From the NCBI GenBank assembly GCA_002101225.1, contig LWTN01000243.1, positions 1 through 64,000 on the forward strand: a stretch of 64,000 nt of DNA, written 5' to 3'. This document shows, piece by piece, positions 13,778 to 15,070 of this stretch; position 1 is the first letter of the stretch; every line of letters starts with the position of its first letter. The notes beneath the pieces are model-generated. The model was not told the origin of the DNA, did no database searches, and saw nothing but the letters and a program-made list of their open reading frames with translations. Both the position numbers and the translations under genes were made by a program. This stretch comes from Cycloclasticus sp. symbiont of Poecilosclerida sp. M (GTDB lineage: Bacteria > Pseudomonadota > Gammaproteobacteria > Methylococcales > Cycloclasticaceae).

Positions 13778-13861
13778 GCATAACGGCATAGCTCACTGGC
13801 CGCCAAGAGCATAATGTAGCGCAGCGAAATGGCGCTTTTGGCGGTCAAGTGCAGTGCCTTG
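13778..13861 (-). repeat. attC-like recombination site 2, interrupted by the IS110 element
   Basis: GCATAACGGCATAGCTCACTGGCCGCCAAGAG...CTTTTGGCGGTCAAGTGCAGTGCCTTG; the missing TTAGAAC end is found at 15048-15054 on the other side of the IS. Confidence 0.72.
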
Positions 13862-15047
13862 TATGATTAAAAAACCGCACTAAAACGGGTAAACTGAGAC
13901 CCACCTTTAGTTGCAACTAAAGGCTTTATGTTACAGCTCGATGGAGTGATGGCTTTTTTCTTAATTAAGAAAACAAAACCGATAACAAGTGAGAGCGTAA
14001 CATAACTCATTAAAGTAATAACTCGAACAGTCATCAGGGACTCGCAGCCCGTATAGCAAGTAGGAGTAATACTACCATGAATAATCAAGAAATAAACGTA
14101 GGCATCGATACCGGTAAACAGCAACTGGATATTTATATCCGTCCATTAGGTGAATACTTCACAGTGAGCAATGATGCTAAAGGCGTGAAAGAGGCGATAA
14201 AACGTATCGCTATCCATCAAACCTACCCGCATTGTAATTGAAGCCACAGGGCGACTAGAAACAGCCTTTGTTTGTGCGGCAGCAAAAGCCAAACTTCCCG
14301 TTGTCATAGCCAATACTTACCATGTCCATAACTTTGCCGTCTCAACAGGTAAACGCGCTAAAATAGACAAGTTAGATGCCAAAATGATAGCCCATTATGG
14401 CGAAGCACTGAAACCCAGACTAAGTGAGATAAAGCCTGACAACATCAAATATATCAGTGACTTATTGGTTAGACGGGCGCAGCTGATTGATATGAGAACG
14501 ATGGAAAAGAATCGATTAAGCATCTTACCTAAGGCACTGCATCGTTCCATTAAAAAGGTCATCAACACCCTACAAAAAGAAGTAGATAAAATCGAACAAA
14601 CGCTTGATGAGCTAATAAAAGAGACGCCTGATTGGCATGAACTGATGATCTTATTAACCAGTGTCAAAGGCGTAGGAAAAGTGCTCGCTTATACTTTACT
14701 CAGTGATCTGCCTGAGTTGGGCCAACTCAATAGGAAGGAAATAGCGGCTCTTGTTGGTGTCGCCCCAATGAACCGAGAAAGTGGCTCTTATCAAGGTACA
14801 CGAAAAATCAAAGGCGGTCGATATCGTATCCGCACTGTCCTGTTTATGTCCATGTTATCAGCGATACAAAGTAACGCTAAATTCAAAGGTATTTATGTCG
14901 GTATGGTAGCGGCAGGAAAGCCAAAAAAAGTAGCCATCGTTGCCTGTATGAGACGGCTAATAACCATCTTGAATACAATGGTTAAAAACAACACTGCTTG
15001 GGATGAGAATTTAGCTTAAAAAGTTGACTTTTAACCACAGTCACTTG
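13862..15047 (+). mobile_element. IS110-family insertion sequence, inferred ends
   Basis: Contains a DEDD recombinase gene; about 215 nt non-coding left end and a short right end; splits attC-like site 2 at CTTG|TTAG. Confidence 0.75.
14077..15019 (+). pseudogene. IS110-family DEDD transposase, frameshifted
   Basis: MNNQEINVGIDTGKQQLDIYI... runs into a stop after ...IHQTYPHCN. The alternative frame gives [31 protein letters not shown]...[17 protein letters not shown]...[20 protein letters not shown]; one extra base near 14220. Confidence 0.88.
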
Positions 15048-15070
15048 TTAGAACTAAAAGGGGGTTAACT

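What the first reader, a model, noticed from the sequence alone, without database searches (positions are those of the whole stretch)
13851..15054. IS110-family element inserted precisely into the core of an attC-like site
The attC-like arm ends ...GTGCAGTGCCTTG at 13861. The missing TTAGAAC end is found at 15048-15054 right after the element (...CACTTG|TTAGAAC). Joining the flanks restores a complete arm, GGCGGTCAAGTGCAGTGCCTTGTTAGAAC, complementary to the opposite arm at 13778-13800. Knowledge: some members of the IS110/IS1111 family specifically target attC sites. This independently supports calling the hairpin an attC. The long noncoding end lies 5' of the gene, as in the IS110 group rather than the IS1111 group, which would be notable for attC targeting.
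Basis: partly seen in the sequence, partly recalled or inferred. Interest (0 to 1): 0.7.

Follow-up and report, generated by a model that had tools for sequence, protein, structure and literature searches.

The report
RNA-guided insertion sequence targeting integron attC
A jumping gene of the IS110 group, which finds its landing site with a guide RNA, belongs to a widespread marine lineage whose guides match the attC sites that integrons use to shuffle gene cassettes; the copy in this window sits in such a site, but its right-hand flank comes from a different insertion.

Summary
The IS110-group element is real, and its left flank is a genuine attC. The native right half of that attC is not in the window.

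Gene order in sister genomes pairs the window's right flank (TTAGAAC...) with contig C240: it is the stop codon and spacer of a methyltransferase gene. It pairs the left flank with contig C231 (attI-metZ). The window therefore joins two different insertions, by misassembly or IS-IS recombination. The 'restored arm' is a coincidence forced by the shared motif CTTGTTA.

Of 32 complete elements (the window copy, 30 homologues and one plasmid copy), 25 lie in attC sites, always at the R'' end. The 5' non-coding region encodes a bridge RNA: 97.9% of structure cells pair, and 18 of 31 pairs change on both sides. Its two target guides covary with the flanks (0 of 20,000 permutations reach the strict match counts). 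The guide AUAACAAG matches attC's TAACAAG start, and elements with variant guides sit in matching variant targets.

attC targeting was documented, in the literature I could search, only for the IS1111 group (guide RNA at the other end). I call this a new variant of a known kind.

The parts
13860..15045 (+). IS110-group insertion sequence (1186 bp, counting one copy of the CT core)
   Evidence: Boundaries from 31 aligned junctions: left always TG|TATG, right TG/GG/CG before TTA
13858..13859 (+). core dinucleotide CT, left copy
   Evidence: Junction comparison; TT in the Photobacterium-type copies on both sides
15044..15045 (+). core dinucleotide CT, right copy
   Evidence: Junction comparison
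13886..14072 (+). predicted bridge RNA: 5' hairpin, target-binding loop, donor-binding loop
   Evidence: 20-sequence alignment A1; 97.9% of cells paired, 18 of 31 pairs with changes on both sides, 0/500 shuffles
13941..13950 (+). left target guide (LTG) AUGGAGUGAU
   Evidence: 6 exact + 1 G-U match of 10 to GTGCAGTGCC; family permutation test 0/20000
13982..13989 (+). right target guide (RTG) AUAACAAG, complementary to CTTGTTA(T)
   Evidence: 7 of 8 to CTTGTTAG; family permutation test 0/20000, strict
14026..14034 (+). left donor guide AACAGUCAU, matching the element's own right end CACAGTCAC
   Evidence: 8 of 9 with G-U; donor permutation test 290/20000
14050..14060 (+). probable right donor guide CGUAUAGCAAG, pairing with CTTG-TATG with a bulge
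   Evidence: read from the sequence by analogy with IS621; not tested statistically
14077..15019 (+). IS110 DEDD transposase gene with a 1-base insertion near 14219 (frame broken)
   Evidence: Alignment with L028; intact L028 protein has PF01548 and PF02371; 3' part of the window gene has PF02371
13778..13859 (-). attC1 (cassette orientation on minus strand) without its R'' end, which the IS cut off
   Evidence: Uninterrupted relatives in sister genomes; hairpin fold
15046..15070 (+). right flank: stop codon and spacer of a methyltransferase gene whose body is on contig C240; not the attC end
   Evidence: C240-left + window-right aligns through the junction with G003; consistent order in G009
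12545..13719 (-). two-gene cassette: CDP-alcohol phosphatidyltransferase (13066-13719) and nucleotidyltransferase (12545-13024)
   Evidence: lies between attC1 and attC2; the TAA stop at 12545-12547 overlaps the R'' of attC2
12461..12549 (-). attC2, unoccupied; carries CTTGTTAT (perfect RTG match) but a poor LTG match (1 exact, 4 with G-U)

Best explanation
This is an IS110-group insertion sequence whose transposase is guided by a bridge RNA made from its left (5') non-coding end. The right target guide (UAACAAG) pairs with the conserved CTTGTTA that forms the R'' start (TAACAAG) of many gammaproteobacterial attC sites. The left target guide pairs with 8-10 bases of the adjoining attC arm. The element inserts at a CT core inside that sequence, which separates R'' from the rest of attC at the end away from the G|TT crossover point in R'. 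In this genome it inserted into attC1 of a small cassette array (metZ - attI - attC1 - phosphatidyltransferase/nucleotidyltransferase cassette - attC2 - ORF - acnB block). A second copy inserted, by guide match, at the stop codon of a methyltransferase gene. The window contig shows the left side of the first insertion joined to the right side of the second. Shown by sequence analysis: anatomy, guide-target covariation, attC identity, and the mismatch of the window flanks. Inferred: that the RNA is made and used, that the insertion disables attC1, and that the joint is an assembly error (more likely) or IS-IS recombination.
For: Homologues in about 20 or more gammaproteobacterial genera share the ends and the layout: 5' non-coding ~200-245 bp, transposase 313-318 aa in most intact copies, 3' non-coding 20-27 bp. 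25 of 32 sites end in a CGTT-type R' of an attC; pairing test over all sites combined P 2.6e-9, window site alone P 0.13. AACG within 40-140 bp in 26 of 31 left flanks against 9.6 expected. 19 of 31 have a reverse-strand ORF ending within 60 bp of the IS, 13 of them with the stop codon inside the target. Guides covary with targets: LTG 171/300 strict against 126.5 permuted, RTG 215/240 against 201.1, 0 of 20,000 for both; sliding the register removes it. Variant guides sit in variant targets: CTGGTTA, CTCGTTA (target TTCGTTA), CTTGTTG, TTTGTTA. Bridge RNA structure is supported by compensatory changes. The genome has an intact integron integrase, 444.9 bits. Flank mismatch.
Against: Seven of 32 sites are not recognisable attC (L029, which has unresolved bases, and L030, L041, L045, L061, L062, L085), and L062 also matches its guide poorly. 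The window copy itself is frame-broken and its flanks are mixed, so it is weak evidence on its own. No RNA or transposition data exist for this lineage. Permutation tests do not fully remove relatedness between elements, although the signal persists with one site per guide. One further own-genome left end (C155) matches the LTG poorly.
Confidence: 0.87

Rival explanations
1. The window arrangement is the intact original insertion: the element jumped once into a complete attC whose R'' end is TTAGAAC.
For: The joined flanks give a plausible arm and the right guide matches CTTGTTAG.
Against: The right flank is syntenic with the methyltransferase locus in G003 and G009, the left flank with metZ/attI on C231 in five relatives. 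No reverse-strand cassette ORF ends at the right flank, unlike 19 of 31 sites in all. TTCTAAC fits RYYYAAC less well than GTCTAAC from C231.
Confidence: 0.05
2. The window joint is a true rearrangement: homologous recombination between two IS copies in the chromosome (inversion, deletion or translocation), not an assembly error.
For: The IS copies are near-identical where they can be compared; the phosphatidyltransferase gene also lies next to ettA in G002.
Against: Draft assembly of 244 contigs in which the other near-identical copies end inside the IS; the G002 adjacency can be explained by independent insertion of that cassette.
Confidence: 0.3
3. The element recognises the folded single-stranded attC hairpin, as the integron integrase does, rather than a linear sequence.
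For: Most sites are attC and the position in the site is constant.
Against: Two guides covary with the linear sequence on both sides of the core; some non-attC sites still match the guides, such as L085 (8 of 10) and the methyltransferase site (7 of 10 with G-U); IS110-family precedents are guided by base pairing to the target sequence (PMC11187229, PMC11208160).
Confidence: 0.06
4. The attC link is incidental: the element only needs TGTTA, which is common, and attC sites are frequent in these genomes.
For: The right guide is nearly invariant and TGTTA is short.
Against: The window alone has about 20 [CG]TTGTTA sites that are unoccupied and match the left guide worse; left guides vary with the attC arm; 25 of 32 sites in attC is far above what composition gives.
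Confidence: 0.05

Closest known systems
IS1111-attC group (ISKpn4, ISPst6, ISPa21, ISPa25; Tetu & Holmes 2008, Post & Hall 2009, seekRNA paper PMC11187229)
   Same: DEDD transposase family, RNA-guided, inserts at one end of attC sites of gene cassettes
   Different: Those carry the guide-RNA region downstream of the gene and have sub-terminal inverted repeats; here it is upstream, repeats of that length are absent and the transposase is 313-318 aa. I could not read which end of attC they use.
IS621 and ISCro4 (IS110 family; bridge RNA paper PMC11208160; PDB 8wt6, 9t56)
   Same: IS621: bridge RNA in the left end with target and donor loops, CT core, short right end. Both transposases are similar to this one over the whole length (phmmer E about 1e-24)
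   Different: IS621 targets a repetitive extragenic palindrome (own knowledge); about 27% identity; different guides
ISEc32 (IS110-like, plasmids of E. coli)
   Same: Closest named relative found, 41.9% protein identity
   Different: Different ends, and no attC in the flanks I read by eye
Group IIC-attC introns (cited in PMC9229058)
   Same: Another class of mobile element that specialises on attC
   Different: Retrotransposing introns, unrelated mechanism

Membership tests
IS110 family, IS110 group | DEDD_Tnp_IS110 (PF01548) plus Transposase_20 (PF02371) | tested here: met
   L028 protein 79.4 and 55.5 bits, above cut-offs; NF033542 199.4 bits against 140; window gene frame-broken but its 3' part matches PF02371
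IS110 family, IS110 group | long non-coding region upstream of the transposase | tested here: met
   about 200-245 bp 5' against 20-27 bp 3' in the intact elements
IS110 family, IS110 group | bridge RNA with target and donor loops in the left end | tested here: met
   covarying structure and target guides; donor guide weaker; RNA itself not observed
IS110 family, IS110 group | circular intermediate with a promoter at the joined ends | not testable with these tools
   needs an experiment
IS1111 group (including IS1111-attC) | sub-terminal inverted repeats of about 7-17 bp | tested here: not met
   best end-to-end inverted repeat 6-9 bp with up to 1 mismatch, near the shuffle mean
IS1111 group (including IS1111-attC) | long non-coding region downstream of the transposase | tested here: not met
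   20-27 bp
IS1111 group (including IS1111-attC) | transposase phylogeny within IS1111 | not tested
   no IS1111 reference sequence was at hand; similarity to IS621 and ISCro4 shown
integron attC site (window hairpin) | R''/R' pairing, arms with an extra-helical base, position 3' of a cassette ORF | tested here: met
   uninterrupted sister copies with ORF stop codon inside R'' in most cases; window fold P 0.02 and 0.01 in two tests, 0.13 in a third
integron attC site (window hairpin) | recombined by an integron integrase | not testable with these tools
   an intact integrase gene is present elsewhere in the genome

The most novel reading that the evidence does not exclude
A distinct lineage of the IS110 group, spread over about 20 or more gammaproteobacterial genera, has specialised on attC sites independently of the IS1111-attC group. 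Its bridge-RNA guides have diversified together with the attC families of its hosts' integrons, so that it occupies and locks gene cassettes at their R'' end.
Probability: 0.6. Interest if true: 0.68.

Novelty: new variant of a known kind. Interest (0 to 1): 0.58.

Why it matters
attC targeting was documented, in the literature I could search, only for the IS1111 group, whose guide RNA comes from the opposite end. Finding it in the IS110 group with left-end bridge RNAs suggests that attC sites were adopted as landing pads more than once. It also provides a natural series of guide variants matched to attC variants in sequenced genomes, useful for working out the mismatch rules of bridge RNAs and for asking whether such elements freeze cassettes in chromosomal integrons. 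The flank result is a caution: with RNA-guided elements, joining the two flanks of one copy can 'restore' a perfect-looking site even when they come from different insertions.

Tried and rejected
Tetu & Holmes 2008 was not held, so the exact attC position used by IS1111-attC elements could not be compared. My first guide-extraction pattern was wrong and gave meaningless guides; corrected. A strict anchored-stem test missed obvious attC sites and was replaced by a flexible pairing score. An attC covariance model was considered and dropped because loop lengths vary too much for the alignment tool. Reference elements ISEc11 and ISEc21 were not in the collections; no element named as IS1111 group appeared in the rows listed even at E 10. 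The idea that the window simply has an intact attC-IS-attC was rejected on gene order. No near match to the element on plasmids.

Full report
Observation. The window holds an IS110-type element next to an attC-like hairpin. Comparison of 31 complete elements (the window copy and 30 homologues) shows that the left junction is always ...TG|TATG while the right junction reads TG, GG or CG before TTA. The exchanged core is therefore the dinucleotide CT, as in IS621, and the element is 13860-15045, 1186 bp. The transposase starts at 14077 and has one extra base near 14219 relative to its nearest homologue (84% DNA identity over the aligned gene), so this copy is broken unless that base is a sequencing error.

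The left flank is an attC. The hairpin 13780-13861 has 76-88% identical counterparts in sister genomes of the same genus; most run without interruption into TTAT or TTAG. Seven of nine have an ORF ending at or near the site, five with the stop codon exactly in its TAACA start, and a further ORF usually begins after it, as in gene cassettes. The extra-helical base lies in the arm that is 3' as printed, so the true orientation is the minus strand: TAACAAGGCACTGCACTTGACCGCC...GGCGGCCAGTGAGCTATGCCGTTATGC. A second attC lies at 12461-12549, its R'' overlapping the stop codon of the nucleotidyltransferase gene, so 12080-13861 reads as a small cassette array. The genome has an intact integron integrase on another contig (444.9 bits against a cut-off of 265), and 14 of 18 genomes of the genus have one.

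The right flank is not the other half of that attC. In G003, which lacks the IS at this place, the methyltransferase gene whose end lies at the C240 copy of the IS runs straight into the homologue of the window gene at 15071. The joined sequence C240-left plus window-right aligns through the junction (alignment score 346, against 216 for window-left plus window-right). G009 has the order C240 genes - methyltransferase - ettA - glyA, and the methyltransferase lies upstream of ettA in the same direction in G001, G005, G006 and G007. On the other side, the acnB block of the window is next to metZ in G001, G005, G006, G007 and G009. In this genome metZ lies on contig C231, followed by a segment like the one directly upstream of intI in G002 and G007 (attI) and then by the right end of another IS copy. 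The native pairs are therefore window-left with C231 and C240 with window-right. The contig in the window joins flanks of two insertions. Misassembly is likelier, because the assembly has 244 contigs and the other near-identical left and right ends stop inside the IS at contig ends, but real recombination between copies cannot be excluded.

The lineage targets attC. One scan of 85,462 species genomes gave 79 loci with relatives, mostly from marine Gammaproteobacteria (Marinobacterium, Shewanella, Photobacterium, Thalassotalea, Paraglaciecola, Pseudoalteromonas, Methylophaga, Thiothrix and others). I closed 31 sites including the window's, and one more from a Pseudoalteromonas plasmid. By the location of a CGTT-type R' that closes a stem with the target, 25 of 32 are attC (the assignment of two of them, L072 and L073, rests only). 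The flexible pairing test gives a combined P of 2.6e-9 over all sites, but only 0.13 for the window site alone; two other stem tests give 0.02 and 0.01 for the window site. These window tests used the joined flanks; the part of the arm contributed by the right flank is only TGTTAG, which C231 supplies equally. AACG occurs in 26 of 31 left flanks against 9.6 expected from dinucleotide shuffles. On the right side, 19 of 31 have a reverse-strand ORF ending within 60 bp, 13 of them with the stop codon inside the target itself, the arrangement expected when a cassette gene's TAA stop overlaps R''.

How it works. The 5' non-coding region (about 200-245 bp in intact elements) aligns across the lineage and folds into a 5' hairpin followed by two loops. 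On 20 sequences, 97.9% of cells of the named structure form standard pairs, 18 of 31 pairs have changes on both sides, no shuffle of 500 reaches these two values, and sliding the structure drops pairing to 31-47%. In the first loop, a 10-base left guide and an 8-base right guide match the target on either side of the core. Over 30 distinct element-target pairs the left guide matches 171 of 300 positions against 126.5 in permutations, the right guide 215 of 240 against 201.1; none of 20,000 permutations reaches either strict value, and the signal exists only in the correct register. The exceptions are informative: elements in CTGGTTA, TTCGTTA, CTTGTTG and TTTGTTA targets carry matching changes in the right guide. 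A left donor guide matches the element's own right end (permutation 290 of 20,000, with one of the seven variants mis-extracted). The window guides are AUGGAGUGAU (13941-13950) and AUAACAAG (13982-13989). That the RNA is transcribed and loaded is inferred from IS621 and ISEc21 (PMC11208160, PMC11187229).

What it does to the integron (inference). Insertion separates R'' from the rest of attC, at the end away from the G|TT crossover point in R'. I expect it to block excision of the cassette at that site; this was not tested. Specificity appears to be for a linear sequence: the methyltransferase site in this genome matches the left guide with 7 of 10 (G-U allowed), as well as the attC does, and the non-attC site of L085 matches 8 of 10. 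About twenty [CG]TTGTTA sites in the window match the left guide worse and are empty, including attC2.

Classification. The element has the defining features of the IS110 group that could be tested and lacks the two tested features of the IS1111 group (downstream non-coding region, long sub-terminal repeats). Its transposase is similar over its length to IS621 and ISCro4; the closest named element is ISEc32, 41.9%. In the papers I could search, attC targeting is described for the IS1111 group only. A study of Shewanella integrons found IS110 elements in cassette arrays but reported none in attC (PMC9229058). Most subscription papers and ISfinder were not available, so the novelty claim is limited to that.

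Noticed in passing
window 12080-13861: Small cassette array without an integrase: attC1, a two-gene cassette (CDP-alcohol phosphatidyltransferase and nucleotidyltransferase), attC2, and a 121-aa ORF (12088-12453) with no NCBIfam match, inserted next to the acnB block. In G002 the same two-gene unit lies next to ettA and homology stops exactly at the attC crossover point.
   Followed up: partly
L008 2349-2448 (C231 38848-38947) and sister genomes: A roughly 100-bp attI-like segment is dispersed in the genus, several copies directly upstream of intI and others apparently far from it (up to 6 matches in G017, one on C192 of this genome). Solitary or duplicated attI sites would be unusual.
   Followed up: partly
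L114 5745-5833 and 5886-5983 (C240 51744-51832 onwards): Truncated right-end remnant of the IS followed by TAGACGGAGCGCGAAGCGGCGCAG, the same 24 bases that follow the IS end on C231, then a perfect 40-bp hairpin and attI-like sequence.
   Followed up: no
G003 contig C61 4578-4736 (L120): Miniature derivative of the element: about 95 bp of left end and 49 bp of right end with the interior deleted, apparently without most of the target-guide loop.
   Followed up: no
G017 C1 92229-93176: Integron integrase gene placed about 120 bp from the 3' end of ettA (this match has an internal TAA); this genome has three integrase matches.
   Followed up: no
window 15071-15580: Gene right of the IS (membrane protein by eye, no Pfam family for the first 122 aa) appears frame-broken near 15439.
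   Followed up: no
L006 4386-4778 (C155): Another copy of the IS left end interrupts an SGNH-hydrolase-like gene (reading by eye, no family search); the flank matches the left guide poorly and has no match in sister genomes, so its true neighbour is unknown.
   Followed up: partly
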